Position numbers and translations under genes: made by a program
Source of the DNA: Alcanivorax jadensis T9
Lineage (GTDB): Bacteria > Pseudomonadota > Gammaproteobacteria > Pseudomonadales > Alcanivoracaceae
Assembly: GCF_000756655.1 (NCBI RefSeq)
Contig: NZ_ARXU01000002.1
Location: 62,001-126,000 of the forward strand
DNA length: 64,000 nucleotides
Reading direction: 5' to 3'
Shown: positions 6,702 to 63,934 of the stretch, piece by piece
Numbering within the stretch: position 1 is the first letter of the stretch
Layout of the letters: each line of letters opens with the position of its first letter
The notes under the pieces: model-generated
Databases searched by the model: none
The model's input: the letters and a program-made list of their open reading frames with translations, nothing else
Told to the model about the DNA's origin: nothing

Positions 6702-7931
6702 GTGACAGCTCCCCAGAACCAAAATCCACTTCCCACTGGCAATGACATCAGCTTGCCGTGGCATCTGCGTCTGCCCAAGCCGCTGGAAAAAGATTTTCGC
6801 CTGTATTTTCTGGCCAGCGTGTCGAAGGTGGCACCCTGGGCGCTGGGACTGGTCTCCATTCTGATCGCCACCGCCATGCTGATCGAATCCTGGATCGGCA
6901 CGGATGTGATCACCAATTCCTGGCGTCCCCGGCTGTTCACCCTGATGCTGGCCGGCGGCTGCGTTATCCTCGCCCGCACACTCCAGTGGCGGGAGTGGCT
7001 TCACCCGGCCACGCTGGCACTGGCCTTCGCCATCGCCCTGACCGGCAATTATCTGGGCGTGCATGTTGAACACCCGCTCTCCTATACCTTTTTCCTGCAC
7101 ACCCCGATGTCGATCATCATGATCTGCATTCTGGTTCGTGTGCCGTTCTATTCCGCACTGCTCAGCTCCACGGTGATGATCGGCGCCATGGTCGCCACGC
7201 TGATCGCCAACCCGGAACGAACCCCCTTCGAGGCCACCACCCTGACCATGGTGACTCTGGCCTTTGCCAGCATGAGCCTGTTTGGCCAGTACGTGTATGA
7301 GCGGTTGTTGCGCCAGCACTTCCTTTCCGAGCACGTGCTTTACCAACACCGCAACGAGCTGCACTCCGCCAACCTGGTGCTGGAAAACCAGGCCACCGTG
7401 GATGGCCTCACCGGCTGCATCAACCGGCGCGGCATGGAGTCCCGGCTCAATCACCTGTTCCATCTGCACAAGCAGGGAAACCCGGATGCACCGGAACGTA
7501 TCAGCCTGCTGCTGTTCGATATCGATTTTTTCAAACAGTACAACGATACCTACGGCCACCCGGCCGGGGATGAATGCCTCAAGAAAATATCCAACGTCCC
7601 CCTTTCCATGGTGCAGGCGGACACCGATTTTGTGGCGCGCTATGGCGGCGAGGAATTTGTCATCGTTCTCACTGACTCCAGCTTCAACGATGCCCTGGTG
7701 TTTGCCGAACGGATGCGTAACCGGGTAGAGCAACTGGGTCTGCCCCACAGCGGCTCCCGGGTCAGCCAGGTGGTCACCATCAGCGTCGGAGTCTCCTGCT
7801 CCGACCACGGCGCCAGCAACAGTGCCGAATTGCTCAAACAGGCCGACGAAGCCCTCTATCAGGCCAAGGGTGCCGGGCGTAATCGGGTGGCGCTGATGAA
7901 CAGTCAGGGGTTGGTGGAGATGTTGAGTTAG
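6702..7931 (+). CDS. Membrane diguanylate cyclase (GGDEF)
   Basis: A 409-aa inner-membrane enzyme that would make cyclic di-GMP from two GTP. About six hydrophobic segments fill residues 35-205, followed by a short linker and a GGDEF domain (about 235-400) with an intact GGEEF active-site loop near residue 314. The product-inhibition I-site is not evident: the position nine residues before the loop is Ala rather than the Arg of RxxD. The start is GTG 6702, with AAAGGAG 11 bases upstream. The sensory N-terminus is not a family I can name. Confidence 0.88.
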   Translation: MTAPQNQNPLPTGNDISLPWHLRLPKPLEKDFRLYFLASVSKVAPWALGLVSILIATAMLIESWIGTDVITNSWRPRLFTLMLAGGCVILARTLQWREWLHPATLALAFAIALTGNYLGVHVEHPLSYTFFLHTPMSIIMICILVRVPFYSALLSSTVMIGAMVATLIANPERTPFEATTLTMVTLAFASMSLFGQYVYERLLRQHFLSEHVLYQHRNELHSANLVLENQATVDGLTGCINRRGMESRLNHLFHLHKQGNPDAPERISLLLFDIDFFKQYNDTYGHPAGDECLKKISNVPLSMVQADTDFVARYGGEEFVIVLTDSSFNDALVFAERMRNRVEQLGLPHSGSRVSQVVTISVGVSCSDHGASNSAELLKQADEALYQAKGAGRNRVALMNSQGLVEMLS

Positions 7932-8088
7932 TTGATAATTGAGAATGGATAATTGATAACTGCGCGATCGGTGTTACTGCAATTTTAAACGCAAGAGGCC
8001 GCGCCCATATTCCGGGCGCGGCCTCTTGCGTTTAAAAACGAACCGGTCTTGTCCGCGGCGTTATCAATTATCCATTCTCAATTATCAA
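7932..8088. repeat. Heptad-armed palindrome around a terminator
   Basis: A perfect 28-bp inverted repeat (7932-7959 and 8061-8088) made of four 7-base words of the type TTGATAA. The left arm begins right after the stop codon of the diguanylate cyclase, and the right arm includes the stop codon of the convergent M23 gene. Between the arms sits the long GC-rich hairpin listed separately. The same plan with other words recurs elsewhere in the window. Confidence 0.88.
7984..8036. terminator. Bidirectional hairpin terminator (AGGCCGCG type)
   Basis: A perfect 23-bp stem (7984-8006 and 8014-8036) with a 7-base loop. The core GCAAGAGGCCGCGCCC is flanked by A/T at the base of the stem, giving short U-runs in either direction. 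It lies between convergent genes. Sister hairpins with the same AGGCCGCG core are at 14856, 38940 and 54789. Confidence 0.85.
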
Positions 8089-8897
8089 TTCATCGGCGGC
8101 ACCACCGTCACCGGATCCAGCTTCACCTCAAACCAGTTCAATCGCCAATCCAGGTGCGGACCGGTAGCGCGGCCGGAGGCGCCGACTTTGGCCACCGGCT
8201 CGCCCTGCTTCACGGTCTGCCCTTTTTCCACCAGTACCTCGCTGAGGTGAATCATGGTGGAGGACACGCCATAGCCGTGATCCATGATCAGGGTGCCACC
8301 GGAATAATAGTTATCCCCCTGCACCAGTCTCACCACCGCATCTGCCGGCGCTACAACAACCGTGCCGGTAGGCCGGGCCACATCCACGCCGAAGTGCGGA
8401 CGGCCGGGTTTCCCGTTATAGACCCGCTGGCTGCCATAAACACCACTGATGCGCCCGGTAAGCGGCCACTGAAAATCACTGAGGAAGGCCAGCAGGGCAG
8501 AGTCGGTATCCCGCGCCGTTTTAATCTCGGCCACCTCGCGACGAATCCGCTTGAGCACCGCTTCCGGCGGCGGCTCCACGGTACGCTTGGGCACCCCTTC
8601 AATCCGCTGGATGTCATAGTCCCGCTTGCTGAGGGTCACGGGTACCTGTTGGGTTTCGCCCTGCTTTTCCAGCACCAGGCTCTGCTGCAGCGCCGCATCA
8701 CGGCCAAACCCGACAGCAAAAAAACCGTCACCGGTAACTCGCACCACCCTGTCATCCAGTTTGACGGCCACCCCCGGCGCCACCTGGCCACGCAGCAAGG
8801 CCCCCTGGGTACGCTCCCCTTCCAGGGACAATAGCCAGTCGCTGGCCATCACATTATCCGCCAGCAGCACGAGCAAACCTACAACAATTCGCAACAT
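8085..8897 (-). CDS. M23 (LytM) peptidase-like protein
   Basis: A 270-aa exported protein. A signal peptide covers residues 1-18, followed by a beta-rich N-terminal region and a C-terminal M23 domain from about residue 150. The first zinc motif HxxxD is present (HFGVD). The second motif, normally HxH, reads HLD in GPHLDW, so one expected zinc-ligand His is Asp. It may still bind metal or may act as a LytM-type activator. The start is the ATG at 8897 after CGAGG; a longer frame upstream runs into repeat sequence. A peptidoglycan role is inferred. Confidence 0.82.
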   Translation of the reverse strand: MLRIVVGLLVLLADNVMASDWLLSLEGERTQGALLRGQVAPGVAVKLDDRVVRVTGDGFFAVGFGRDAALQQSLVLEKQGETQQVPVTLSKRDYDIQRIEGVPKRTVEPPPEAVLKRIRREVAEIKTARDTDSALLAFLSDFQWPLTGRISGVYGSQRVYNGKPGRPHFGVDVARPTGTVVVAPADAVVRLVQGDNYYSGGTLIMDHGYGVSSTMIHLSEVLVEKGQTVKQGEPVAKVGASGRATGPHLDWRLNWFEVKLDPVTVVPPMN

Positions 8898-8985
8898 CGA
8901 ATACCTCGAAACGGTTACAGGGATCAGAGGAAACCGGCACTGAATATATACGGAGAACCTGTCTGGGGATTCATTGGAAGGATCT

Positions 8986-9134
8986 GTCGAGTGCTGAAAT
9001 CCCTGATCGCCCTGCGGTCGATTTCCGCGCAAGCGCGGTTCGCCATGCAAGCATAGCTCCTACAGCGGCTTCGTAGAAACACCGGGCCCGGGAACTTTCC
9101 AACCTACCAGTATCCAGCGAGCGCGGCTCGTAGC
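8986..9134. repeat. REP-like unit, second copy
   Basis: A near-copy of the unit at about 4680-4832, sharing the hairpins around GATCGCCCTGCGG and CCGCGCAAGCGCGG and the outer GCTCCTAC. It again ends (CTCGTAGCT) at the stop codon of a minus-strand gene, here the HD-GYP gene. Identity is high over the first 90 bases and weaker over the rest. Confidence 0.8.
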
Positions 9135-10706
9135 TCAGAGAAAAGCGCTGCCATCCTCCACATCCAGCTGCACCGGATCCAGATGTTTCTCGGCGTACTG
9201 GCGCCACACCCGGGAGCGGATGAACAGACGATAAAGATCCGGGTCTAGGTGATCGTTGTCGCGCATGCGTTGCAAGATGCCAAGGGCTTCGCTGAGTTTC
9301 AGTGGCGTCTTGTAGGGGCGCTCCTTGGCGGTAAGGGCCTCGAACACATCAGCGATGGCCATGATCCGCGCCGGAATCGACATCTGGTCGCGGGTCAGCC
9401 CCAGCGGAAAGCCGGTGCCATCCATTTTTTCATGATGGCCGCCAGCATATTCCGGCACCTGGCGCAGCTTGGGCGGGAACGGCAACGAGCCAAGCATGTC
9501 CAGGGTCACATCCATGTGGCCGTTGATGATTTGCCGTTCTTCTGGAGTCAGGGTGCCGCGAGGAATGCACAGGTTGTAGACCTCGTCGTCGGTGAGCAGG
9601 GGCTTTTTCTGACCCCAGGCATCGGTCCAGCGCCGCGCGGCGATATCACGCACCCGTTGCTGATCCACCTCAGCCATGGCCTCACCGCCCCGGTTGATCC
9701 GCTCCAGAAACGCCAGCTCTTCCTTCAGCTGGCCGATTTCCGCTTCCATGCGTTCCCGGCTGGCAGGCTCGTCAGCGGGATCAAGCAGACAGGCCTTTTC
9801 GTAACGAAACTGGATCTCTGCACGCAGGGCGGCAAAGCGGCTGGCCACCTCATCGATGCGATCATGGAGGGTGTGCAGTTTGGTGGACTTGTCCAGTACC
9901 GAGTCCGGGGTAGCCAGCTTGCCGCAATCGTGCAGCCAGGCCGCCACGTGCAACTCGTACCAGCCATCCTCATCCAGGGAAAAATCCGCAAAGTCCGAAT
10001 CATCCTCACAGGCCGCCTGGGCCAGCATCTCGGTGATCACCGGCACCCGCTGACAGTGGGCACTGGTGTGCGGGCTCTTCGCATCAATGGCCTGGGCCAG
10101 CACCTTGATAAAGGCATCCAGCAGTTCCTTGAGTTCCTGCACCTGGCTCAGGTTGCTGAGGGCAATGCCCGCATAGGTGAGCAGGGACTGGAAGATCAGG
10201 TCGCTGTGCTTGCCCAGCCGGTGCAAACGGGCCGGTAGCGCGCGGTTATAGGCCAGCTGCAGCACACCGATGACCACCCCTTCGTGGTTCCGCAGGGGCC
10301 ACAGCCGCAACCCGCCGGCATCCGGGGCCAGCGCATCCAGTAAGTGCCGATCCTCCTCGCTGAGGCCGTTCTCCGACAGGTCCACCGCCAGCGGCTTACC
10401 GTCTTCGTAACACTGCTCGGGCAACCCTCGTTTGCGCGCCATGGGGCAGAACAGGCTGGCCTCCTCGTGCAGGAAAGCATCACCGGAACGGCGGCACAGG
10501 CAGCTCAGCCCCGGTTCGGGCTTACCATCCGCATACAGCCACACCCAGCCGGTATCGGCCTCACACAGATACAGGGCCTCATCCAGCAACACCTGCAGCA
10601 GGCGCGGTACGTCCCGCTGCTCGCTGAGATGCTGCGCCACCCGCAGCAACCGCGGCATCAGGTTTTCATCCGTCACCGGTGTGGTATCGGGCAAAGAGGA
10701 ATTCAT
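9135..10706 (-). CDS. GAF-like plus HD-GYP domain protein
   Basis: A 523-aa cytosolic protein. Residues about 30-200 look like a GAF-type sensor (TGWVWLYADG, LRLWPLRNHEGVVIGVLQLAYN), and an HD-GYP domain follows. HD is visible in WLHDCGKLA near residue 260; HHEKMDGTGFP near residue 427 is the GYP region with Tyr replaced by Phe. HD-GYP enzymes hydrolyse cyclic di-GMP. An inserted helical region of about 100 residues separates the two motifs. The start is ATG 10706 with GGGAG upstream; an in-frame TTG 18 bases earlier is less likely. It may oppose the diguanylate cyclase at 6702. Confidence 0.85.
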   Translation of the reverse strand: MNSSLPDTTPVTDENLMPRLLRVAQHLSEQRDVPRLLQVLLDEALYLCEADTGWVWLYADGKPEPGLSCLCRRSGDAFLHEEASLFCPMARKRGLPEQCYEDGKPLAVDLSENGLSEEDRHLLDALAPDAGGLRLWPLRNHEGVVIGVLQLAYNRALPARLHRLGKHSDLIFQSLLTYAGIALSNLSQVQELKELLDAFIKVLAQAIDAKSPHTSAHCQRVPVITEMLAQAACEDDSDFADFSLDEDGWYELHVAAWLHDCGKLATPDSVLDKSTKLHTLHDRIDEVASRFAALRAEIQFRYEKACLLDPADEPASRERMEAEIGQLKEELAFLERINRGGEAMAEVDQQRVRDIAARRWTDAWGQKKPLLTDDEVYNLCIPRGTLTPEERQIINGHMDVTLDMLGSLPFPPKLRQVPEYAGGHHEKMDGTGFPLGLTRDQMSIPARIMAIADVFEALTAKERPYKTPLKLSEALGILQRMRDNDHLDPDLYRLFIRSRVWRQYAEKHLDPVQLDVEDGSAFL

Positions 10707-10910
10707 GAGCAATCCAGCTCCCAATGATCATCCGTAACAAAATCGTGTATTTACCCAGCAAGCATAGGCTGAGCCAGGATTTCAGGCAAAACAGGCCGCC
10801 ATACGTCTATTTCCCTCCGACCGGCGCATATACCGCCGGTTCCGGTTGAAGCTCTGGTCTGGATTGCCTACCATCTGCCGGTTCCGAGCCAATCTGGATT
10901 CCTACCTCTC

Positions 10911-12827
10911 ATGAGTGTCAGCTATCAACTGCCCGACGGGGCAACCATGGCGTTTGATCAGCCGGCGTCCGCCCTGGACATCGCCGAGCGTATCAGCAAA
11001 AAACTCGCCAAACAGGCACTTGCCGCCAAAGTGGACGGCAAGTTGATCGATGTTTACCTGCCCATCGACGATGGCGCCACGGTGGAAATCATCACCCGCG
11101 ACACTGATGACGGCCTCGATCTGATCCGCCACGATGCTGCCCATGTGATGGCAGAAGCCGTGCAGGAGCTGTTTCCGGGAACCCAGGTCACCATTGGCCC
11201 GACCATCGAAAACGGCTTTTACTACGACTTCTATCGGGAGGATTCTTTCACCCCGGAAGACCTCAAATCCATCGAAAAACGCATGATGGAAATCGTACGT
11301 CGCAACGAGTCTATACGGCGTGAAATCTGGGATCGGGACGAAGCCGTCAGCTTCTTCCTCAAAGAAGGCGAGGAATTCAAGGCGGAGATCATCCGTGACC
11401 TGCCCGCCGACCAGGAAGTGAGCCTCTACCGCCAGGGCGATTTCATCGACCTGTGCCGTGGCCCCCACCTGCCCAGCACCAGCAAGCTGGGCGACGGCTT
11501 CAAGTTGATGAAGGTGGCCGGCGCCTACTGGCGCGGCGATGCCAGCAAGGCTCAGCTTCAGCGTATCTACGGCACCGCCTGGCGCGACAAGAAAGAACTC
11601 AACGCCTACCTCAAACAGCTTGAGGAAGCGGAAAAGCGCGACCACCGCAAACTGGCCAAGGAAATGGGCCTGTTCCATATCCAGCAGGAAGCGGTGGGCA
11701 GCATGTTCTGGCACCCGAAAGGCTGGCGCATGCGCAAGAACCTGGAAAACTACATCCGCGGCAAGATGGAAAAAGGCGGCTACCAGGAAGTGGCCACCCC
11801 GCAGATGATGGACCGCATCCTCTGGGAAAAGTCCGGTCACTGGGACAAGTACGGCGACGACATGTTCACCGTCTGCACCCACGATCACCGGGAAATGGCG
11901 GTCAAGCCCATGAACTGCCCGGGCCACGTGCAGATCTTCAATCAGGGCATCAAGAGCTACCGGGACCTGCCCATTCGCCTGGGCGAGTTCACCACCCTGT
12001 TCCGTAACGAAGCCCACGGCGCCCTGCACGGCCTGATGCGCGCCCGCTCCTTCAGTCAGGATGATGCCCACATCTTCTGTACCGAAGGGCAGATCAACGA
12101 AGAAACCGCCGCTTTCATCACCATGCTGCGTGAGGTCTACAAGGACTTCGGCTTCGAAAGCTTCCGCATCAAGTTCTCTGACCGCCCGGAAAAACGCGCC
12201 GGTGCCGACGAGACCTGGGACAAGGCCGAAGGCGCTTTGCGCGAAGCGGTGGAATCCCTGGGGCTGGAATGCGAATTGAACCCGGGTGAAGGGGCCTTCT
12301 ACGGACCGAAACTGGAATTTGTCCTGCGCGACGCCATTGGCCGTGACTGGCAGTGCGGCACCCTGCAGGTGGACTTCGTGCTGCCCGAGCGCCTGGATGC
12401 GGAATACGTGGCCGAAGACGGCTCTCGCCAGCGTCCGGTGATGCTGCACCGTGCGGTGCTGGGTTCTCTGGAGCGCTTCCTGGGCATCCTGATCGAATCC
12501 ACCGCCGGCCACCTGCCCCTGTGGCTGGCACCGGTGCCGGTGGCCGTTTGCACCATCACCAATGCGGCGGATGACTACGCCCGCAGCGTGAAGGAAAGAC
12601 TGGAAGCGGCCGGCATCCCGGCGGAGCTGGACCTGCGTAACGAAAAGATCGGCTTCAAGGTGCGCGAGCATTCCCGCGCCAAGGTGCCGCAGATCTGGGT
12701 CATTGGTGAAAAGGAAGCGGAAGAGCAACAGGTCGCCCTGCGCCGCCTGGGTTCCCAGGCCACCGACACGGTAAGCCTGGACGCCGCCGTCACCGCCCTG
12801 GCCAACGCCACCCGCCTGCCGATCTGA
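10911..12827 (+). CDS. thrS: Threonyl-tRNA synthetase
   Basis: A 638-aa class II synthetase that charges tRNA-Thr. TGS (1-60) and editing domains (HDAAHVMAEAVQELFP) precede the catalytic core with zinc Cys in MNCPGH and motif 2 around GALHGLMRARSFSQDD. The C-terminal anticodon-binding domain (DLRNEKIGFKVREHS) ends in a short tail like that of alphaproteobacterial enzymes. infC, rpmI and rplT, the usual gammaproteobacterial neighbours, do not follow; hisI and cysS do. It could be a relocated or second, transferred thrS. The start is ATG 10911. Confidence 0.95.
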   Translation: MSVSYQLPDGATMAFDQPASALDIAERISKKLAKQALAAKVDGKLIDVYLPIDDGATVEIITRDTDDGLDLIRHDAAHVMAEAVQELFPGTQVTIGPTIENGFYYDFYREDSFTPEDLKSIEKRMMEIVRRNESIRREIWDRDEAVSFFLKEGEEFKAEIIRDLPADQEVSLYRQGDFIDLCRGPHLPSTSKLGDGFKLMKVAGAYWRGDASKAQLQRIYGTAWRDKKELNAYLKQLEEAEKRDHRKLAKEMGLFHIQQEAVGSMFWHPKGWRMRKNLENYIRGKMEKGGYQEVATPQMMDRILWEKSGHWDKYGDDMFTVCTHDHREMAVKPMNCPGHVQIFNQGIKSYRDLPIRLGEFTTLFRNEAHGALHGLMRARSFSQDDAHIFCTEGQINEETAAFITMLREVYKDFGFESFRIKFSDRPEKRAGADETWDKAEGALREAVESLGLECELNPGEGAFYGPKLEFVLRDAIGRDWQCGTLQVDFVLPERLDAEYVAEDGSRQRPVMLHRAVLGSLERFLGILIESTAGHLPLWLAPVPVAVCTITNAADDYARSVKERLEAAGIPAELDLRNEKIGFKVREHSRAKVPQIWVIGEKEAEEQQVALRRLGSQATDTVSLDAAVTALANATRLPI

Positions 12828-12841
12828 AGCCACGAAACACC

Positions 12842-12906
12842 GTTGGAGCCTTGCTCGCAAGGCGAATAGAGGGTTACCCCTTCGCTTTGCAAGCAAAGCT
12901 CCAACG
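12842..12906. repeat. REP-type inverted repeat pair (GTTGGAGC)
   Basis: Facing GTTGGAGC and GCTCCAAC units with TTGC(T/C)(C/T)GCAA-type cores, between thrS and hisI. The first T of GTTGGAGC has a compensating A in the other arm, compared with the GTAGGAGC form elsewhere. Confidence 0.8.
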
Positions 12907-12932
12907 GCAGCATTCAGCCCCCGGAGGCGTTC

Positions 12933-13361
12933 ATGTTCAAAGACAACGAACAACAGCCCGAAGGCTTTCAGGTGCCACTACAAGAGGCCCTGGACAACCT
13001 GAAGCTCACCGACGACGGCCTGATCGCCGCCATCGCCCAGCAGCATGACACCGGCGAAGTGCTGATGATGGCGTGGATGAACCGGGAAGCCCTTGAGGAA
13101 ACCCTTGCCACCGGCCGGGTCTGCTACTTTTCCCGCTCCCGGAAAAAACTCTGGCGCAAAGGCGAGTCCTCCGGCCAGGTGCAGATGCTGAAAGAACTGC
13201 GCATCGACTGCGACGCCGACACCGTGCTGGTAAAAGTGGACCAGACCGGCCCCGCCTGCCACACCGGCCGCCGCGACTGCTTCTACTGGAAAGCCGACGC
13301 CAACAACGTGACCATCGACAAGACGCCGATCATCGATCCGAAAGAGCTTTATAAAAAATGA
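12933..13361 (+). CDS. hisI: Phosphoribosyl-AMP cyclohydrolase
   Basis: A 142-aa HisI, third step of histidine synthesis (PR-AMP ring opening). The zinc and active-site signature [19 protein letters not shown] and the following TGRRDCFYW carry the conserved Asp and Cys ligands. [16 protein letters not shown] is also diagnostic. There is no HisE domain, and no other his gene lies nearby. Its stop overlaps the cysS start as ATGA (13358-13361), so the two are probably translationally coupled, which is an unusual pairing. Confidence 0.95.
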
Positions 13362-14740
13362 CTCTCAAGCTGCACAACACCCTCACCGGGCAGAAGGACG
13401 ACTTCATTCCGCTGGATCCCAACCGCATCACCCTCTACGTGTGCGGCCCCACGGTCTATAACTTCGTCCATATCGGCAACGCCCGCCCGGTGGTGGTCTT
13501 TGATGTGCTGTACCGGCTGCTGCAACGGCTCTACCCGGAAGTGGTCTACGCCCGCAACATCACCGATATTGATGACAAGATCATCAAGGCTGCGGCGGAA
13601 AACAGCGAAGACATCGGCGTGCTCACTGAGCGCTTCACCGCCGCCTTCGCCGAGGACATGGCGTCTCTGAACGCGAAAACCCCGAACATCATTCCCAAGG
13701 CCACCGACCATATCAACGAGATGATCGCCATGATCGAGACCCTGGTGGAAAAGGGCCACGCCTACGAGGCCGACGGCCAGGTGCTGTTCGCGGTGGAATC
13801 CATGCCCGACTACGGCAAGCTTTCCGGTCGCAAACTGGAAGACATGCTCGCCGGTGCCCGGGTGGAAGTGGCCGACTACAAGCGCCACCCCGGCGATTTC
13901 ATCCTCTGGAAGCCGTCCACCGACGAGCAACCGGGCTGGGAGTCTCCCTGGGGCCGTGGCCGCCCAGGCTGGCACATCGAGTGCTCCGCCATGATTCACA
14001 AACACCTGGGTGACGTGATCGACATCCACGGCGGCGGCCAGGACCTGATTTTCCCGCACCACGAGAACGAGATTGCTCAGGGCTGCTGCGCCCACGGCAC
14101 CGATTACGTGCGCTACTGGATGCACAACGGCTACATCAATATCGACGGCGAGAAGATGTCCAAGTCCCTGGGCAACTTCCGTCTGGTCCGCGATCTGCTT
14201 ACCCAGTACCACGGCGAAATCCTGCGCTTTGCCCTGCTTTCCAGCCACTACCGCTCGCCACTGAACTTCTCCGCCGACGTACTGGATAACGCCGAAAAAG
14301 GCCTGGATACCCTCTACTACGCCCTGCTCGGTCGCGGTGAAACGGTGGAACCGGAACCCGGCTACCAGCTGCCGGACAACCACCCGGTGCTGGACGCCCT
14401 CAAGGATGACCTGAACACCTCCGAAGCGGTCAGCGCCCTGCACGCCATCGCCGGTGAACTGAACAAGGCCGAGCTGGCCGACAAACCAGCCCTGAAAGCC
14501 GAACTGCTGGCCGCCGCCGACCTGCTCGGCCTGCTGACGGTCGAGCCCACCGACTGGTTCCAGAACAAGAACGTGAGCGAAGACGGCCTCAGCAACGAAG
14601 AGATCGACACCCTGGTCGCCGAGCGCACCCAGGCCAAGAAAGACAAGAACTTCGCCCGCGCCGACGAGATCCGCCAGCAACTCACCGACGCCGGCATCCA
14701 GCTGGAAGACACCCGCGAAGGCACCCGCTGGAGTCGCTAA
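13358..14740 (+). CDS. cysS: Cysteinyl-tRNA synthetase
   Basis: A 460-aa class I synthetase that charges tRNA-Cys. The HIGH-type motif is VHIGNARP (about residue 36), KMSKS is intact ([10 protein letters not shown], about residue 268), and the zinc-site Cys and His are seen in [15 protein letters not shown] and PHHENE. The length is normal for bacterial CysRS. It overlaps hisI by four bases. A hairpin terminator of the AGGCCGCG family lies downstream. Confidence 0.96.
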
Positions 14741-14745
14741 CCCCC

Positions 14746-14772
14746 TGTAGGAGCCATGCTCGCATGGCGAAC
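14746..14772. repeat. Single REP-like unit
   Basis: One TGTAGGAGCCATGCTCGC unit followed by ATGGCGAA, directly after cysS. Unlike most others it has no facing partner nearby. Confidence 0.65.
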
Positions 14773-14855
14773 CTGCTAGCGATAACGGCCAATAACCAAA
14801 AGGCCATAGCGGCAAGCTTCAAGCTGCAACGCGATAGAAAGTTGTCATGACCTGA

Positions 14856-14900
14856 AACGCAAGAGGCCGCACCCAAACCCTGGGCGCGGCCTCTTGCGTT
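14856..14900. terminator. Bidirectional hairpin terminator (AGGCCGCG type)
   Basis: A 19-bp stem (14856-14874 and 14882-14900) with one mismatch and core GCAAGAGGCCGC, nearly identical to the hairpin at 7984. It lies between the convergent cysS and START-domain genes. Outer flanks contain 7-base-periodic words (near 14815-14830 and 14928-14958); the right flank runs into the 3' end of the START gene. Confidence 0.8.
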
Positions 14901-14948
14901 CAACAACCCATAATCCTGCATCGCCTCTAGCAGCTAGAGGCTAGAAGC

Positions 14949-15608
14949 TCAAAGCTTCAATCCCTCCATCCCCGGCAGTTCCGGCAAATCCCCCCGCGTC
15001 GCTTGCGCAAACCGCGGCTTCTCCAACTGCTCCTTCAACCCCTCCAGGGTCACCAGTGGCGCCCTGGTGGACACCAGGTTGGCCAGCCACACCGGCACAT
15101 TGCCGCCCGGGTCCACGAAGGTCTCGAACTTCACCCGCACCCAGCCGTCCGCCAGGGGGGTGATCACGAACTGGTTATCCAGAGCGGGAATACGCACGAA
15201 ACCCTGCTGCTTGTCCTTGAAGCCTTCGGCGTTCTCACTGTGCAGGTGAATCTCGCCATCGGCTTTCTGGGTCAGCGTATTGACCAGCACCACGTCCCGG
15301 TCCGCCACCGGCCAGATACCATTGAAACGCATGTGGATACGCTCTTTTTCCTTGATGCTGAGCCGGTCCGCCCCCTGGCTCTGGAAGATCCATTCCTCAA
15401 AGGTATCCACCGCCGTAATCACCGCCAGTACCGAGGTAGCACTGGTCTGCAACTCCACAACGCCCTTGAAGGCCTTCACCGAGCTGTCAGACACCTCGCG
15501 CACATAGGTCGTAACCTCACCCCGCTGCGCGCCCTCGTGGTTCAGTTCCCAATCCGCAGCCCAGGCAGGGGCCGCCAGCATTAACAACGCCACAACAACA
15601 GCTTTCAC
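14949..15608 (-). CDS. START-domain lipid-binding protein, exported
   Basis: A 219-aa protein with a signal peptide ending in PAWA (about residue 17), followed by a single START-type helix-grip domain (VDTFEEWIFQSQGADRL; WPVADRDVVLVNT; FVDPGGNVPVWLANLVS). Such proteins bind hydrophobic ligands, and related proteins occur in Pseudomonas. The ligand is unknown. GTG 15608 is chosen because AGGAG lies seven bases upstream; the longer TTG start at 15623 would include the ribosome-binding site in the protein. Confidence 0.78.
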   Translation of the reverse strand: MKAVVVALLMLAAPAWAADWELNHEGAQRGEVTTYVREVSDSSVKAFKGVVELQTSATSVLAVITAVDTFEEWIFQSQGADRLSIKEKERIHMRFNGIWPVADRDVVLVNTLTQKADGEIHLHSENAEGFKDKQQGFVRIPALDNQFVITPLADGWVRVKFETFVDPGGNVPVWLANLVSTRAPLVTLEGLKEQLEKPRFAQATRGDLPELPGMEGLKL

Positions 15609-15712
15609 AACAACACTCCTCAATCATGTCCGTGGCGCAGTATGCACCGCGCTTGCCGCCAGACAAGGCCCCTCCCGCAGATTGGCACAACCGGCCAGAC
15701 CTCTTCTTTTTT

Positions 15713-15779
15713 GTAGGAGCTTGCTTGCAAGCGAACCACAGCGGCTGCCGAATCGGTTCGCTTGCAAGCAAGCTCCTAC
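15713..15779. repeat. REP-type inverted repeat pair
   Basis: A perfect 25-bp inverted repeat (15713-15737 and 15755-15779) with GTAGGAGC ends and TTGCTTGCAAGC core, in the 304-bp gap between the divergent START and yidD genes. Just beyond it, 15801-15829 holds one half of the CTCTGTG 9-base-periodic repeat. No gene is seen in this gap. Confidence 0.88.
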
Positions 15780-15912
15780 AGGCAAAGGCGAGCCTTGCCT
15801 CGGTGAACTCTGTGCCCTCTGTGGTAAAAATCGATTTTGATCAGGCTGGCATCCGCCACCGGATTGGCCGTATCATGCCCCGTTGAGTTGACACCACACA
15901 GGTCTTGATACC

Positions 15913-16188
15913 GTGAAATCGTTTCTGCTCGGCATGCTCTGGTTGTACCAGAAGCTGCTGAGCCCCTGGATCGGCAACCAGTGCCGCTTCTATCCCACCT
16001 GCTCGGAATACGCCCGACAGGCGGTGGAAGTCCATGGCAGCCTGCGCGGCAGCGCGCTGGCGGCGAAGCGTTTGTGCAAGTGTCACCCTTGGCATGCCGG
16101 CGGGTTCGACTATGTGCCGGGCACCGAGCCCGGTCAGGAACAGCACCGCTGCAGCGACCACACCGCCCCGGGGGAGAACGCACAATGA
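15913..16188 (+). CDS. yidD: Membrane protein insertion efficiency factor YidD
   Basis: A 91-aa YidD. The signature [20 protein letters not shown] (residues 11-30) and the conserved [15 protein letters not shown] with its cysteines are present, preceded by an amphipathic N-terminus for membrane association. YidD usually sits between rnpA and yidC; here it stands apart and leads a possible zinc-uptake cluster. The start is GTG 15913. Its end overlaps the next start by four bases (ATGA). Confidence 0.9.
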
Positions 16189-38236: not shown

Positions 38237-38893
38237 ATGACAACAATACTGATAGCCGATGACCATCCCCTTTTCCGCGCTGCCCTGAAACAGGCGGTGG
38301 AGGCCAGCTTTGTCGATGCCACCATCCACGAAGCGGACTCCCTGGCCACCCTGGAAACCCTGGGCCAACAGGCCATTCCCTTTGATGTGATTCTGCTCGA
38401 CCTGCACATGCCGGGTACCCATGGCTTTTCCGGCCTGGTCTATCTGCGCGAGCAGTATCGCAAGGTGCCCCTGGTGGTCATTTCCGCCACCGAAAGTGTC
38501 GACGTGATTCAACGCGCCATTCACTTTGGTGCCGATGGGTTTATTCCCAAGTCGGCCTCCATCGATACCATGACCGATGCCATGCGCAAGATCATGGAGG
38601 GTGAGCGCTGGCTCCCCGAACATGCCCGCCGGGCCATGCCCCCCACCCTGCCCGACCATTCCGCCATGAGCGAACGCATCGCCAGCCTCACCCCCCAGCA
38701 ATTCCGGGTGATGGGAATGTTGATGGAAGGTATGCAGAACAAGGTCATCGCCTACGAGCTGGATGTCTCGGAAGCCACCATCAAGGCCCACATGACCGCT
38801 ATCTTCCGAAAACTGGGCGTACGCAACCGCACCCAGGCTGTATTGGCCTTGAAGGATTTGGCGATTGAACCGCAAGGGATGGAAGGGAGTTAA
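38237..38893 (+). CDS. crbR: Response regulator of acetate metabolism (CrbR/ErdR-like)
   Basis: A 218-aa LuxR/NarL-type response regulator. The receiver domain (residues 1-120) has DD at 9-10, the phospho-acceptor Asp in LLDLHMPG (about 54) and Lys in FIPKSAS. The helix-turn-helix is at about 149-210 (LTPQQFRVMGMLMEGMQNKV). Homologues CrbR/ErdR activate acs and actP together with the hybrid kinase CrbS/MxtR, encoded by the convergent gene. A six-codon frame, ATG 38220, ends with a TGA overlapping the crbR start and may affect its translation. Confidence 0.87.
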   Translation: MTTILIADDHPLFRAALKQAVEASFVDATIHEADSLATLETLGQQAIPFDVILLDLHMPGTHGFSGLVYLREQYRKVPLVVISATESVDVIQRAIHFGADGFIPKSASIDTMTDAMRKIMEGERWLPEHARRAMPPTLPDHSAMSERIASLTPQQFRVMGMLMEGMQNKVIAYELDVSEATIKAHMTAIFRKLGVRNRTQAVLALKDLAIEPQGMEGS

Positions 38894-39030
38894 CAGTGAA
38901 CAGTTAATAGTGCGCGCCGAGCGCATGTGTTTCTAATACGCATGAGGCCGCGACCATGGTTTGGTCGCGGCCTCATGCCTTGAAGAAAAATAAACACCAA
39001 ACCGCGAGCTGTTAACTGTTCACTGTTCAC
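38889..39030. repeat. Heptad-armed palindrome around a terminator
   Basis: The arms 38889-38910 and 39009-39030 match at 20 of 22 bases. They consist of 7-base words of the type GTTAACA/GTGAACA, and the word series continues right across the crbS stop codon at 39033. The left arm includes the crbR stop. The arms enclose the hairpin at 38940-38978. Same plan as 7932-8088 with different words. Confidence 0.85.
38940..38978. terminator. Bidirectional hairpin terminator (AGGCCGCG type)
   Basis: A perfect 17-bp stem GCATGAGGCCGCGACCA with a TGGTT loop, between convergent crbR and crbS. The core matches the hairpins at 7984, 14856 and 54789, although the stem ends differ. Confidence 0.83.
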
Positions 39031-39032
39031 TG

Positions 39033-42000
39033 TTAACTATTCACTGCTTCTAACGTTCGCCGCAACATCCCCTCCGTCAACGGCTTCTGCAAAAAACCTA
39101 TCCCCTTTTCTTCCGCTCGTTCGCGTACGGCCGGGTTGCGGTCGGCGGTCATCAGGATGGCGGGGACCACGTCTTCCCAGCCGCTGTCCAGGCCGTCGAT
39201 AACAGTAAAGCCGTCTTCATTATCCAGCTGATAATCCACCAACAGCATATCCGGGACCGGGCAGGTGGCGGCTTTTTTCAGGGCGTCATCAAGGCCGCTG
39301 GCGGCGATCACCTCACAGTCGAGCATCTCCAGGGCAGCCACCAGGCTGGCGAGCAACGCCGGATCGTTATCCACGCAGAAAACCCGCATGCCTTGAATGC
39401 CCTGGCTGACGGTTTCTGTTTCCTGCAGCACCGGCGGCACCTCACCCTTGGCCAACGGCACGGTGACACTGAATACGGTGCCCTTGCCCGGCCAGGAGCG
39501 AACCGTTAAACGATGTCCCAGAAGACGACAGATGCGATCGGCAATGGCCAGGCCCAGCCCCAGGCCCTTTATCGATTTACGGCTTTGTTGCGGCAGGCGC
39601 TGGAATTCCCGGAAGATCGCCTCGTGCTGATCATCGGGAATCCCCGGGCCTGTATCCCACACGTCAATGCGGATGGCATTGTGCTGGCGACGACAGCCAA
39701 ACAGGATACGCCCCTGCTCGGTATAGCGAATGGCATTGGAGAGCAGATTCTGCAACACACGGCGCAACAGGCCTTCATCCGTTTCCACCACGGCGTTACA
39801 AATGACAGCCCGCAGACTGAGGTCATTGGCGGCGGCCAGCGCAGAAAACTCCTGGCTTAACGGTTCCATCAGACTACCCAGGCGCAGCGGGTGCACGTGG
39901 GCGGGCATGGTGCCGGTATCCAGTTTGCTGATTTCCATCAGCGCGCTAATGATCTGCTCGGCGGCCTGCAAGGAGGTATCCACATGCCCGAGCACAGCCA
40001 CCTCATGGGCAAAGCCACCACCATCACGCTTGATCAACTGCTGGCGCAGTGACGAAGTAAACAGCTGGGCCGCATTGAGTGGCTGCATCAGGTCATGCCC
40101 GGCGGCAGCCAGGAAACGGGTCTTGCCATCGTTGGCGCGGGCCAGTTTTTCATTGACCTCGGTAAGCTTGCGGGTGCGCTCGGAGACCATGTTTTCCAGG
40201 TTTTCGTTGATCTGACGCAGGGCCTGTTCGTCGCGTTTTCGTTCGGTGATATCCATGTAGGTACTGACAAAGCCACCCCCGATCATCGGCGTGCCGCGCA
40301 CTTCCACGACGATGCCGTTGGGCAGCTCCCGCTCGAACTGGTGGGAGTGACCTTCGCGCAGCAACTGCACCCGCTTGCTCACATCCTCTTCCAGGTTGTC
40401 ACCCTCGTAGTAGCCGCGCTCCGCGTTATAGCGATACACATCCTCAATGGACCGCCCCAGCCGGATCAGCCCCTCCGGATAATCGAACAGCTTCACGTAG
40501 GCCTGATTCCAGGCCACCACCTGCATCTCTCGGTCCACCACACAGATACCCTGGCTGATGGTTTCGATGGTGGTGCGCAGCAACTGGTGATTGAACTGGA
40601 TGAGCTCGGAGGCCTCATCCATCATCCGCACCACATCGTCATGACGGCTGTTCTGCTTGCGCAGCAGGGTGCTCATCACGATCCGTGCGGTAGACGCCCC
40701 CATGGTGCCCGCCAGCAACCGCTCCACGTAGCGCACCAGATGCAAAGGCGCCGGTAATGCCAGCTCCTCGGACACACTGCGCCGACGCATGTAATCGAAG
40801 AACAGCGGCTCGGCTCGGGGATGGCCAAGCCCGCGTTTGCACACTTCCAGCAGCTCTGCGGTAGTAATGGACGGGTGGCCAATCCCTTCGCGCCACCAGT
40901 CCATGGGCATGTCCACAAACCGGGCCGCCTGAGCCTCGTCGAGGGCATCGTGGGTCGCACGTCGGGAAAAATAGATAAACGCTGCCAGGTTCCCCAATAG
41001 AGACCAGAACACGCCATGGGTGAGCGGCTCCAGCCCCTCGATGCCAAACAGGGCATGGGGCCGCAACAAGCCCAGTCCGAGCAGGCCCCGTTCGTTTAGC
41101 ACCTGCACCCATTCCATGGGCAATATCACCGGCACCAGCAAACAGTAAAACCACAGCAGAAAGCCGACACCCAACCCGGCAAAAGCGCCCTGCTTGTGAC
41201 CGGTGCGCCAATACAGCGCCCCTACCAGCGCCGGGGCAAACTGGGCCACCGCCGCAAAGGACAGCAGGCCAATACTGGCCAGCCCATCAAAACGGTCAAT
41301 CAGGGTATGGAAGGCAAAGGCCAAGCCCAGCAATACCAGAATGCTGGCCCGGCGCAGGAATCGCAGCTGCCGGCTCAAGCCGGCCAGTTGATCCTTTTCA
41401 TGGAGCCGGGACTGCAACCACAAGGGCAACAGCACCTCGTTGGTGAGCATGATGGCCAGCGAGATGGTGGACACAATCACCATGCCGGTTGCCGCCGCGA
41501 TGCCGCCAATAAAGGACACCATCAGCATGGCGGAATTGTCCTGGGCTATGGGCAACGACAGCATATAGGTGTCTGCCTGACCAATCAGATAAGGCTGGGT
41601 GATGACCCCGGCCACCACGATGGGCAGCACAAAGATGGCAAACATCAATAGATACAGCGGAAACAGCCAACGGGTGGTGCGCAGGTGTCGCAGGTCATTG
41701 TTCTCCACTACCCCCGCATGGAACTGACGAGGCAAACAGAGGATCGCGACCATGGACAGCAACAGGGCGGTGACAAAACTCTGCGAGAACAGGGTGGGCT
41801 CGAAAATCTGCAGCACGTCACCTTGCAACTCCAGTTGCTGCCACATATCCATGGGGCCATCGAAAATGGCATACAGGCAGTAAAGCCCCAGCAACACAAA
41901 GGCCACTACCTTGATAAAGGACTCGAAGCTTACCGCCAGCATCAGGCCGGACTGGTGTTCGGTGGTATCGATATGGCGGGTACCGAACAGCAGGGTAAAG

Positions 42001-42500
42001 ACCGCCATCAGTGCCGCCACCACCAGGGCGGTATCCACCCCGTACTGGGCGGAATCCTTGAGCACATAATCAAACGACAGGGTGACGGCTTTCAGCTGCA
42101 GGGCGATATAGGGGAGCACACCGATGATCGCCACCAGGGTGACCAGGACCGCCAGCCGGCGGGACTTGCCGTAACGGGCAGCAAGGAAATCGGCGATGGA
42201 GGTAATATGATGCTGCTGGGCCACCGTCACCATCTTGTAGATCAGGGCACCGCCCAGCAGTACCGTGAGAATCGGGCCGAGGTAGATGGGCAGGTAGTTC
42301 CAGCCGTTCTGTGCGGCTTCCCCCACCGCCCCGTAGAACGTCCAGGAAGTGCAATAGACACCCAGACCCAGGCTGTAGACCCAGGCATTCTGAAAGGTTT
42401 TGCGACCCTTGCGTGCCGCCCGGTCGCCCCACCAGGCGATCACGAACAGCACCAGCACATACCCCAGTGCCAGGCCACTCAGCTGCCACAATGAAAACAC
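39033..42500 (-). CDS. crbS: Transporter-linked hybrid histidine kinase (CrbS/MxtR-like)
   Basis: A 1155-aa inner-membrane protein. Residues 1-480 form a 12-13-helix sodium:solute symporter-like domain; a PAS domain follows (about 650-770), then a HisKA with phospho-His in GHDLMQPLNA (about 800), a HATPase domain (NLLSNAIRYT; GLGLGLAIADRI) and a receiver with Asp in LLVDYQLD (about 1088). CrbS/MxtR and CbrA share this layout; pairing with the adjacent crbR and acs points to the acetate system. The start is GTG 42500 after GGGAGC. Confidence 0.9.
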   Translation of the reverse strand: MFSLWQLSGLALGYVLVLFVIAWWGDRAARKGRKTFQNAWVYSLGLGVYCTSWTFYGAVGEAAQNGWNYLPIYLGPILTVLLGGALIYKMVTVAQQHHITSIADFLAARYGKSRRLAVLVTLVAIIGVLPYIALQLKAVTLSFDYVLKDSAQYGVDTALVVAALMAVFTLLFGTRHIDTTEHQSGLMLAVSFESFIKVVAFVLLGLYCLYAIFDGPMDMWQQLELQGDVLQIFEPTLFSQSFVTALLLSMVAILCLPRQFHAGVVENNDLRHLRTTRWLFPLYLLMFAIFVLPIVVAGVITQPYLIGQADTYMLSLPIAQDNSAMLMVSFIGGIAAATGMVIVSTISLAIMLTNEVLLPLWLQSRLHEKDQLAGLSRQLRFLRRASILVLLGLAFAFHTLIDRFDGLASIGLLSFAAVAQFAPALVGALYWRTGHKQGAFAGLGVGFLLWFYCLLVPVILPMEWVQVLNERGLLGLGLLRPHALFGIEGLEPLTHGVFWSLLGNLAAFIYFSRRATHDALDEAQAARFVDMPMDWWREGIGHPSITTAELLEVCKRGLGHPRAEPLFFDYMRRRSVSEELALPAPLHLVRYVERLLAGTMGASTARIVMSTLLRKQNSRHDDVVRMMDEASELIQFNHQLLRTTIETISQGICVVDREMQVVAWNQAYVKLFDYPEGLIRLGRSIEDVYRYNAERGYYEGDNLEEDVSKRVQLLREGHSHQFERELPNGIVVEVRGTPMIGGGFVSTYMDITERKRDEQALRQINENLENMVSERTRKLTEVNEKLARANDGKTRFLAAAGHDLMQPLNAAQLFTSSLRQQLIKRDGGGFAHEVAVLGHVDTSLQAAEQIISALMEISKLDTGTMPAHVHPLRLGSLMEPLSQEFSALAAANDLSLRAVICNAVVETDEGLLRRVLQNLLSNAIRYTEQGRILFGCRRQHNAIRIDVWDTGPGIPDDQHEAIFREFQRLPQQSRKSIKGLGLGLAIADRICRLLGHRLTVRSWPGKGTVFSVTVPLAKGEVPPVLQETETVSQGIQGMRVFCVDNDPALLASLVAALEMLDCEVIAASGLDDALKKAATCPVPDMLLVDYQLDNEDGFTVIDGLDSGWEDVVPAILMTADRNPAVRERAEEKGIGFLQKPLTEGMLRRTLEAVNS

Positions 42501-45356: not shown

Positions 45357-45454
45357 TTAAAAGTGGAAAGTTCAACGCCTAAAAGCGCGAGAAGCAAAGC
45401 AACTGGCAGGCGTCTGCCTAGCCCTCGTTTCAACTTTGAACTTTCAACTTTTAA
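45357..45454. repeat. Heptad-armed palindrome
   Basis: The arms 45357-45375 and 45436-45454 match at 18 of 19 bases. The right flank reads in 7-base steps (CTTTGAA, CTTTCAA, CTTTTAA). It lies between actP and the CBS gene on the same strand, in the leader of the CBS gene. No AGGCCGCG hairpin is enclosed here. Confidence 0.8.
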
Positions 45455-45480
45455 CTCTCCTCCCTTATTCCGGAAAGCGC

Positions 45481-61999: not shown

Positions 62000-62470
62000 T
62001 TACAGTGCCTTAAACAGGGAGACCATTTCCAGCGCGCTCATAGCCGCTTCGGCACCCTTGTTGCCAGCCTTGGTGCCGGAACGTTCGATGGCCTGTTCAA
62101 TGGTGTCCACGGTCAACACACCGAAGACCACCGGTACGCCTGTGGCGTTCTGGACAGCGGCAATGCCTTTGGCTGCTTCGCCGGCCACATATTCGAAGTG
62201 GGCGGTGCCACCGCGAATCACCGCACCCAGGGTGATCACTGCATCGTAATCGCGCTTTTCGATGACCTTCTTCACTGCCACCGGCATCTCCCAGGCACCG
62301 GGGACACGGATGATCTCGATATCATCAGGGCTGACACCGTGACGGACCAGCGCATCCACCGCGCCTTCCAGCAGGGCTTCCACCACAAAGCTGTTGAAAC
62401 GTGCAACGACGATACCGTAACGACCGCCCACATTGTTCAGAGTGCCTTCCAGGGTTTTGATGTTTTGCAT
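62000..62470 (-). CDS. ribH: 6,7-Dimethyl-8-ribityllumazine synthase
   Basis: A 156-aa lumazine synthase, the next-to-last step of riboflavin synthesis. [47 protein letters not shown] and [11 protein letters not shown] include the active-site Phe, Glu and His. The length is normal. It follows ribB after about 134 bases that contain the heptad palindrome at 62527. Confidence 0.95.
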
Positions 62471-62526: not shown

Positions 62527-62601
62527 CAGTCGGACGTCGAAAGTCGGACGTCTGACGCTCTTGAAATTGTCGTCCGACGCCAAACTTCAGACGTCCGACG
62601 T
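62527..62601. repeat. Heptad-armed palindrome
   Basis: The arms 62527-62557 and 62571-62601 face each other imperfectly and read in 7-base steps of the type AGTCGGA/CGTCTGA. The right arm ends four bases from the ribB stop codon. It lies between ribB and ribH on the same strand. The words are GC-rich, unlike those at 7932. Confidence 0.75.
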
Positions 62602-63714: not shown

Positions 63715-63779
63715 AGTGGTACTCGACCTATTTAGCGTGGAAGCAAACGGCACTTCCTCTGCATTTTTCACCGGTGATG

Positions 63780-63934
63780 AGCTGCAAGCTACAAGCCGCA
63801 AGCTACAAGGAAAACCAGTGCGAACCCTGTCTTTCCGGTACGCCGCGATGTTGGCGCACTCCAGCCTGCAATTGATGGCAACCCGCTTTTATCGCGTTGA
63901 AGCTTGTCACTTGCGGCTTGTTACTGGCGGCTTC
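63780..63934. repeat. Heptad-armed palindrome
   Basis: The left arm, about 63781-63809, reads in words of the type GCTACAA/GCCGCAA; the right arm 63903-63931 faces it with about 23 of 29 matches. The right arm runs to the ribE stop codon. It lies in the leader between ribE and ribB. No FMN riboswitch was recognised in 63715-63930. Confidence 0.75.

What the first reader, a model, noticed from the sequence alone, without database searches (positions are those of the whole stretch)
7932..8088. Palindromes with 7-base-periodic arms whose word differs at each locus
At least five loci (7932, 38889, 45357, 62527, 63780; weaker at 14815-14958) have inverted arms built from tandem 7-base words. Each locus uses a different word: TTGATAA, GTTAACA, CTTTCAA, AGTCGGA, GCTACAA. 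Architecture and period are conserved while sequence is not, which suggests a process that re-writes both arms together, or a family recognised by periodicity rather than sequence. In most copies one arm abuts or includes a stop codon. I know short heptanucleotide repeats from cyanobacteria and similar words in Pseudomonas, but not a described family of this kind.
Basis: partly seen in the sequence, partly recalled or inferred. Interest (0 to 1): 0.8.

Follow-up and report, generated by a model that had tools for sequence, protein, structure and literature searches.

The report
Heptad-armed hairpin cassettes between genes
Many gaps between genes in this marine bacterium (Alcanivorax) hold a short DNA cassette, often a hairpin, framed by two mirror-image arrays of seven-base words, and related species often carry a different cassette with different words at the same place, swapped or flipped as one unit.

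Summary
The palindromes are real: 7 lag-7 clusters in the window against a shuffled mean of 0.125. Three of the six loci (7932, 14815, 38889) belong to a family of 56 hairpins in this genome. Typical layout: [about 4 heptads]-CGCG-hairpin GAGGCCGC..GCGGCCTC-CGCG-[heptads inverted], mostly between convergent frames, arms starting at stop codons. The other three loci have arms but no such hairpin.

Words are not unique to a locus: about seven classes recur, and both arms agree in class at 37 of 38 cassettes here and 35 of 37 in relative G016. Class usage differs between genomes: class A/B pattern counts are 40/50 here, 1/252 in G016, 44/9 in G011.

In orthologous gaps the word switches with the interior. 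Same-class pairs keep the interior in 15 of 18, different-class pairs in 0 of 19. Flanking genes are at background identity beyond about 30 nt. Four of those 15 interiors are inverted.

Best reading: terminator-like gap cassettes replaced as units and flipped by palindrome-provoked recombination. The agent is unidentified. Heptad inverted pairs are published for Xanthomonas and Geobacter; I found no description of cassette turnover or dialects.

The parts
7926..7966 (+). Left heptad arm, class A (AATTGAT AATTGAG AATGGAT AATTGAT), beginning at the TAG stop of the GGDEF gene (frame 6702-7931)
7983..8037 (.). Central hairpin, core 7995-8025 GAGGCCGC..GCGGCCTC, terminator-like on both strands
8054..8092 (-). 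Right heptad arm, class A, inverted; overlaps the stop of the peptidase M23 gene (8085-9050, minus strand)
14808..14829 (+). Left heptad arm, class F (AGCTNCA), downstream of the cysteinyl-tRNA synthetase gene (13358-14740)
14856..14900 (.). Central hairpin, core 14863-14893
14921..14962 (-). Right heptad arm, class F; overlaps the end of frame 14949-15623 (minus)
38888..38916 (+). Left heptad arm, class B (AGTKAAC); contains the stop of a LuxR-type response regulator gene (38237-38893)
38930..38988 (.). Central hairpin, core 38944-38974
39000..39049 (-). Right heptad arm, class B; overlaps the stop of a histidine kinase gene (39033-42500, minus)
45357..45396 (+). Left heptad arm, class E-like, degenerate, at the 5' end of a DUF294 gene (frame to 45375, minus); no GAGGCC hairpin at this locus
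45415..45462 (-). Right heptad arm, class E (AGTTGAA/AGTTCAA), downstream of an SSF transporter gene (45533-47329, minus)
62528..62558 (+). Left heptad arm, AGTCGGA/CGTCGAA word, upstream of a lumazine synthase gene (62000-62470, minus); no GAGGCC hairpin
62571..62599 (-). Right heptad arm of the same locus, downstream of ribBA (62605-63801, minus)
63779..63812 (+). Left heptad arm, class F (AGCTACA/AGCCGCA), at the 5' end of the ribBA frame; no GAGGCC hairpin; next gene not identified (window end)
63902..63933 (-). Right heptad arm of the same locus

Best explanation
These are intergenic cassettes. The hairpin form is about 150 nt, runs roughly from gene end to gene end, and consists of two inward-pointing arrays of about four heptads of one word class around a bidirectional terminator-like hairpin, mostly between convergent genes. 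A shorter form without that hairpin lies between co-directional genes. SHOWN (for the samples named): the architecture, copy number, class agreement of the two arms, position of arms at stop codons, different class usage in different genomes, replacement of arms and interior together at orthologous loci, flanks at background identity beyond about 30 nt, and inversion of the interior or of the loop alone. INFERRED: the long inverted structure is a hotspot for breakage and template switching. Breaks are repaired over short tracts from the same locus of another lineage, sometimes from another cassette of the genome, which swaps the cassette whole; template switching between inverted arms or stems flips what lies between. 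Cassettes stay at gene borders because the hairpin stops transcription from both sides. Why a genome prefers one word class is not explained by this alone.
For: Structure and family. Arms of one class: 32 of 32, 37 of 38 and 35 of 37. Stops at arm starts: 56 of 64 arms. Both neighbouring frames end toward the hairpin at 33 of 43 loci, against 17 of 400 random positions. Unit replacement: 15 of 18 same-class versus 0 of 19 different-class pairs keep the interior. Tract length: at 15 switched loci flank identity is 0.870 in the first 30 nt, then 0.92-0.94; at 9 retained loci 0.91-0.93 throughout. Exchange between species: at 7932 the G011 interior is an exact reverse complement of that of G000, the match ending about 22 and 43 nt into the genes while flanks are 86-92% identical; G012 and G014 share an identical interior at gap6 with flanks at 84-90% beyond 60 nt. 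Inversion: 4 of 15 conserved interiors, loop alone at L036. Copies between loci: for example L252, L050, L024 score 34-44 against a shuffled maximum of 20. Template switching between inverted repeats is described as causing arm homogenisation and spacer inversion (PMC8604942, abstract start in the listing).
Against: No breakage, recombination or transcription was measured. The T-run after the stem is interrupted (consensus TTGCGTTT), so termination is inferred. Template switching should make the arms of one locus more alike than arms of different loci of the same class; they are not. Interior inversion was seen only in class A cassettes: none of the 12 further conserved pairs in the five other genome comparisons is inverted. 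Most interiors have no recognisable relative in the same genome, so a donor was seen only for a few. The flank test cannot exclude ordinary recombination with donors of the same species that already carried another cassette.
Confidence: 0.5

Rival explanations
1. Class-specific readers: a DNA- or RNA-binding protein in each genome recognises the heptad word, and cassettes with the matching word are kept or favoured. Replacement is ordinary gene exchange filtered by that reader.
For: Class agreement without individual agreement of arms; genome-level class preference; arrays point inward from gene borders whatever the gene direction (by eye).
Against: No reader was identified or searched for beyond one transposase family. 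G000 itself uses several classes.
Confidence: 0.2
2. A transposon-like (MITE) family: heptad arms are terminal inverted repeats used by class-specific transposases, and each class is one element family.
For: Inverted ends of matching class; a few dispersed near-copies of interiors in one genome.
Against: No target-site duplication: mean longest flanking direct repeat 2.97 nt against 3.01 in the permutation. At the gaps studied, the cassette sits at the same place in relatives while its content differs (G016 and G011 loci were chosen for having hairpins or words, so absence was not surveyed). Y1_Tnp genes, the one transposase family searched, are absent from G001, which has 13 hairpins.
Confidence: 0.12
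3. Ordinary simple-sequence repeats: heptads arise and spread by polymerase slippage next to terminators, with no cassette-level process.
For: Slippage at seven bases has been proposed for bacteria in general (reported in PMC4692102); arms vary by whole heptads (for example L026 and L040).
Against: The same 24-mer AATTGAGAATGGATAATTGATAAC recurs exactly at many loci; arms agree in class; interior and word switch together.
Confidence: 0.06
4. A DNA uptake signal of the Neisseria kind: the hairpin core or the heptad is an uptake word, and transformation exchanges the DNA around it.
For: DUS has species dialects and is often an inverted pair at terminators (PMC3630211, passages); the core is constant while the gap content is exchanged.
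Against: GAGGCCGC is not enriched as single copies: 7 in the window on both strands against 6.9 expected from its sub-words, 6 of them in the three hairpins. Heptad words were not tested for single copies.
Confidence: 0.04

Closest known systems
GGGAATC heptameric repeats of Xanthomonas and GGGGA(C/T)T repeats of Nostoc (PMC4692102; sections 10, 13 and 16 and passages read)
   Same: Heptads, usually four units; in Xanthomonas 70 and 75 cases of two sites in inverted, convergent arrangement; mostly intergenic, near or overlapping stop codons on the coding strand, or near start codons on the non-coding strand.
   Different: There one G-rich word, studied as G-quadruplexes, mostly between genes in the same direction. 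Here about seven word classes, a conserved hairpin form between mostly convergent frames, class agreement of arms, class preferences per genome and unit replacement. In the parts of that paper that I read no central hairpin or class rule is described.
Paired repeat sites of Geobacter metallireducens (PMC2700814; passages)
   Same: Tandem heptads (classes with four or five units) and other tandem sites; several classes, mostly found in pairs on opposite strands.
   Different: Proposed there as global-regulator (IHF/HU) binding sites; separate classes also with 8-, 7-9- or 5-base units. No orthologous replacement in the passages seen.
TAACTGA direct repeats of Beggiatoaceae, Cyanobacteria and Bacteroidetes (PMC4679880; abstract, outline and passages)
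   Same: Intergenic heptad arrays of a related sequence type, spread over distant phyla.
   Different: Mostly direct arrays just upstream of start codons, with one indirect repeat reported in the main genome; no hairpin cassette.
DNA uptake sequence dialects of Neisseriaceae (PMC3630211; passages)
   Same: Species dialects of a short word; inverted pairs associated with terminators.
   Different: Single copies in genes are common there; the hairpin core here is not enriched outside hairpins.
REP/BIME elements with RAYT transposases (recalled)
   Same: Dispersed intergenic palindromes near gene ends.
   Different: REP units are not framed by heptad arms (recalled); here Y1_Tnp genes and hairpin number do not go together in G001.

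Membership tests
Heptad inverted pairs of the Xanthomonas kind (PMC4692102) | Tandem heptads, typically four units, as two inverted arrays near ORF borders | tested here: met
Heptad inverted pairs of the Xanthomonas kind (PMC4692102) | G-rich word able to form G-quadruplexes | tested here: not met
   Words of classes A-E have no GGG run (word lists)
Intrinsic terminator | Stable G+C-rich hairpin downstream of a gene | tested here: met
Intrinsic terminator | Run of T after the stem | tested here: inconclusive
   Mean 4.34 T in 8 over 100 tails, consensus TTGCGTTT; the terminator scan of 7000-16000 did not list the hairpins at 7995 and 14863
Intrinsic terminator | Transcripts end there | not testable with these tools
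   No transcript data used
DDE transposon or MITE | Terminal inverted repeats | tested here: met
DDE transposon or MITE | Target-site duplication | tested here: not met
   2.97 versus 3.01 nt over 32 loci
DDE transposon or MITE | Autonomous copy with a transposase inside the arms | not tested
   No systematic search for distant arm pairs was made
REP/RAYT system | Dependence on a Y1 transposase in the genome | tested here: inconclusive
   Y1_Tnp in 16 of 17 genomes, none in G001, which has 13 hairpins
DNA uptake sequence | Strong excess of the word, also as single copies | tested here: not met
   Hairpin core only; window only; 7 observed against 6.9 expected
Rfam families | Match at the gathering score | tested here: not met
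   0 matches in the window
Invertible element with a site-specific recombinase | Inversion between inverted repeats | tested here: met
   4 of 15 conserved interiors, all class A
Invertible element with a site-specific recombinase | Cognate recombinase gene | not tested
   No search was made

The most novel reading that the evidence does not exclude
A word-specific trans-acting system in each genome (a reader or recombinase of given specificity) drives gap cassettes toward the host's own heptad dialect: cassettes in a foreign word are replaced whole from related DNA, so the gaps are rewritten in a species dialect while the genes on either side stay untouched. Similar heptad arrays, some in inverted pairs, in Cyanobacteria and Bacteroidales would then mark a widespread, unrecognised kind of intergenic cassette system.
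Probability: 0.22. Interest if true: 0.88.

Novelty: new variant of a known kind. Interest (0 to 1): 0.62.

Why it matters
Heptad arrays are reported from unrelated bacteria without an agreed function (PMC4692102, PMC4679880). A genus where they frame a defined cassette, agree in class at both ends, differ in usage between species and turn over as units makes the question testable: what exchanges the cassettes, and does anything read the word. It also shows non-coding gaps changing in discrete steps while the genes beside them drift normally, which matters for comparing intergenic regions between related strains.

Tried and rejected
Rejected or weakened: words unique to a locus; arm copying within a locus as the cause of class agreement; long import tracts as the immediate cause of switches (same-species donors not excluded); target-site duplication; uptake signal for the hairpin core; known RNA family; simple dependence on Y1 transposases. 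Literature: nine of ten searches used. None showed a paper on heptad-armed cassettes or word dialects in Alcanivorax, for literal words, gave three papers that look unrelated by title. The library holds open-licence papers only, so absence is weak evidence.

Limits and dropped rows. Word classes were drawn up by hand from the same loci that were then scored. One search used 43 of 56 hairpins. One search used 54 hairpins in held G000 sequence and 56 in held G016 sequence, one mismatch per stem side allowed; G016 has 66 exact ones, of which 50 were listed. In one search the pairs are those for G000 with G016 and with G011. One pair (window 14863, FF versus FE) was left out, and 3 of the 12 G011 rows had no armed hairpin in G011. 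The cut-off 0.76 was set after seeing the values: at 0.74 the counts are 16 of 18 and 1 of 19 (window 7995 versus G016, 0.75). Random G000-G016 pairs have 99th percentile 0.72 and maximum 0.96, and may include true orthologs by chance. The five other comparisons overlap in loci and genomes. There, 12 of 13 same-class pairs reach 0.76 (the other is 0.75), none inverted; of 15 different-class pairs none does (highest 0.75); two EF/FF rows and 11 rows without a cassette are left aside. L248 (A versus B in G016) was seen but is not in the tables. One search used 15 switched and 9 retained loci and left out L033, L038, L044 and 14863. G011 loci were picked by class A words and G016 loci by the hairpin. 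Gap8 rows include misparsed short hairpins and were not used. In one search the exact heptad order of Alcanivorax class A was found in 2 of 89 places, L125 and L173, both Alcanivorax records; 46 of 89 are plain AATTGAT arrays.

Full report
OBSERVATION. The five named loci hold inverted arms with a period of seven. Lag-7 arrays are not chance: 7 clusters against a shuffled mean of 0.125, maximum 1, in 40 shuffles. The locus at 14815 is weak as an inverted repeat but has the same central hairpin as 7932 and 38889. The left arm at 45357 is degenerate.

WHAT IT BELONGS TO. The pattern GAGGCCGC-N(8-24)-GCGGCCTC occurs 3 times in the window (none expected), 56 times in the genome and 13-68 times in each of 17 genus members including this one. 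In 194 genomes sampled from the order, 19 have a match: many copies in the two genus members sampled, 1, 6 and 11 in three others of the family, and single copies elsewhere. The genus is Alcanivorax by inference: contig C103 of G011 has the length of NZ_JABURH010000137.1, an Alcanivorax sp. record with a class A cassette, and G001 has 3120143 bases, which I recall as A. borkumensis SK2.

ANATOMY. At 43 of the 56 hairpins (3 in the window, 40 fetched) the usual layout is [about 4 heptads]-CGCG-about 25 nt-hairpin-about 25 nt-CGCG-[heptads inverted]; some lack one arm and one has none callable. At the 32 loci with two callable arms the stop codon of the flanking frame ends within -20..+28 nt of the arm start for 56 of 64 arms. 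At 33 of 43 loci both neighbouring frames of at least 100 codons end toward the hairpin within 90 nt, against 17 of 400 random positions; frames, not proven genes, were used. Word searches in the genome show the same arms around shorter interiors without this hairpin. In L242, L247 and L256, for example, one arm follows a stop codon and the other stands just before an ATG (read by eye). In the window, 45357 and 62527 lie between co-directional genes (SSF and DUF294; ribBA and lumazine synthase), and 63780 lies at the 5' end of ribBA. So arrays mark gene borders and point inward whatever the gene direction, as reported for Xanthomonas (PMC4692102).

WORDS. About seven classes, defined by hand: A AATTGAT, B AGTKAAC, C AGTTGAC, D AATTAAT, E AGTTKMA, F AGCTNCA, G ACGCAWC; 62527 has a further word. 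The arms of one cassette agree in class: 32 of 32 (permutation mean 7.9, maximum 17 of 10000); 37 of 38 in G000 and 35 of 37 in G016. Within a class, arms of the same locus are no more alike than arms of different loci (0.825 versus 0.861, p = 0.73). Agreement is therefore at class level, which speaks against one arm simply being copied onto the other; class A varies little, so the test is weakest there.

DIALECTS. Exact pattern counts, both strands, overlapping matches included, for class A / class B: G000 40/50, G001 0/0, G002 20/0, G003 9/300, G004 1/187, G005 0/238, G006 0/86, G007 0/1, G008 1/167, G009 0/5, G010 6/9, G011 44/9, G012 0/264, G013 6/7, G014 0/363, G015 4/90, G016 1/252. The control (pattern read backwards) gives at most 4 for A and 1 for B in any genome. 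Only these two classes were counted genus-wide. Among hairpin cassettes with agreeing arms, A makes 17 of 37 in G000 and 0 of 35 in G016 (Fisher p = 1.5e-6).

ORTHOLOGOUS GAPS. Flanking sequence was used to find the same gaps in relatives. In G016, with flanks at 84-99%, mostly 88-97%, 16 of 29 gaps hold another word: A to B at window 7995, L016, L026, L048 and L054; C to B at L019, L030, L037 and L043; A to D at L042 and L051, A to D/B at L039; E to F at L035 and L049; B to C at L046; D to B at L044. Twelve keep the class, and one (14863) is FF versus FE. Over G000 with G016 and G011, same-class pairs keep the interior in 15 of 18 and different-class pairs in 0 of 19 (Fisher p = 9e-8; pairs are not independent, cut-off 0.76 set after seeing the values, see Tried and rejected). 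Two gaps, 14863 and L044, look like half-swaps, with one side of the hairpin kept (by eye). At switched loci flank identity is 0.870 in the first 30 nt and 0.92-0.94 beyond, like the retained loci (0.91-0.93).

INVERSIONS. All six A/A pairs of G000 and G011 share the interior, three inverted; L050 is inverted between G000 and G016: 4 of 15 conserved interiors, all class A. In the five other comparisons none of 12 conserved interiors is inverted. At 7932 the G011 interior is the exact reverse complement, with one mismatch in an arm and the match ending about 22 and 43 nt into the genes. The hairpin loop alone is inverted at L036 and, by eye, at gap3 between G000 and G015.

MECHANISM. The facts fit gap cassettes that are exchanged whole over short tracts, occasionally copied between loci, and flipped across their own inverted repeats. 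Palindromes as fragile sites, and template switching that homogenises arms and inverts spacers, are described (PMC7999016 and PMC8604942; abstract starts in the listing). That this drives the exchange here is inference, and the missing likeness of the two arms within a class counts against template switching as the source of class agreement. The likely function is bidirectional termination or insulation between convergent genes; the stem is strong, but the T-run is interrupted and the consensus scan did not list these hairpins. What sets the dialect is open: a word-specific protein, or history.

ELSEWHERE. A pattern of class A heptads finds at least 113 stretches in genome contigs (scan stopped at its limit; 80 listed), mainly Cyanobacteria and Bacteroidales, with some Deltaproteobacteria, Patescibacteria, a few Firmicutes and Alcanivorax. 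Of 89 places examined 46 are plain AATTGAT arrays, and the exact Alcanivorax order occurs only in the 2 Alcanivorax records. Of 78 arrays tested, 13 have an inverted array of the word family within 250 nt downstream, 7 a direct one, against 1 of 78 random positions. Only part of them resembles the cassettes here.

KNOWN OR NEW. Heptad arrays in inverted pairs near ORF borders are published for Xanthomonas, and paired repeat sites, some of them heptads, for Geobacter (PMC4692102; PMC2700814). TAACTGA arrays occur in several phyla (PMC4679880). In nine searches of an open-licence library I found no description of this cassette, its class rule, its dialects or its replacement. I rate it a new variant of a known kind.

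Noticed in passing
gap3, end of the gene coding L043:1-1527 (NadB-like by eye), in G000, G003, G007, G011, G015, G016: The last two to four codons and the stop codon differ with the cassette, as if the cassette supplied the end of the reading frame (by eye).
   Followed up: no
L249 (G000:C3:356200) and L250 (G000:C6:44550): A class A array is followed not by an inverted heptad arm but by another inverted repeat of the type TAGGAGCGCCGCTTGAGGCGCGAA.
   Followed up: no
window 62528-62599 and 63779-63933: Heptad arrays lie between riboflavin genes (ribBA, lumazine synthase), a gap that one would expect to be within an operon.
   Followed up: partly
G003:C1:309135-309213 and G003:C1:2078491-2078548: Long runs of one class B heptad (about 11 and 8 units) in G003, far longer than the usual four.
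   Followed up: no
L128, L135, L168 and other Okeania records: Class A-like arrays are followed by a conserved stretch ACCTCTGGTTAAAACCGTTACGGAATTGAATATAAGG, and in L128 the inverted partner has class D-like words.
   Followed up: partly
G000-G016, Y1_Tnp matches: RAYT-like Y1 transposase genes occur in 16 of 17 genomes in one to seven copies; their neighbourhood was not examined.
   Followed up: no
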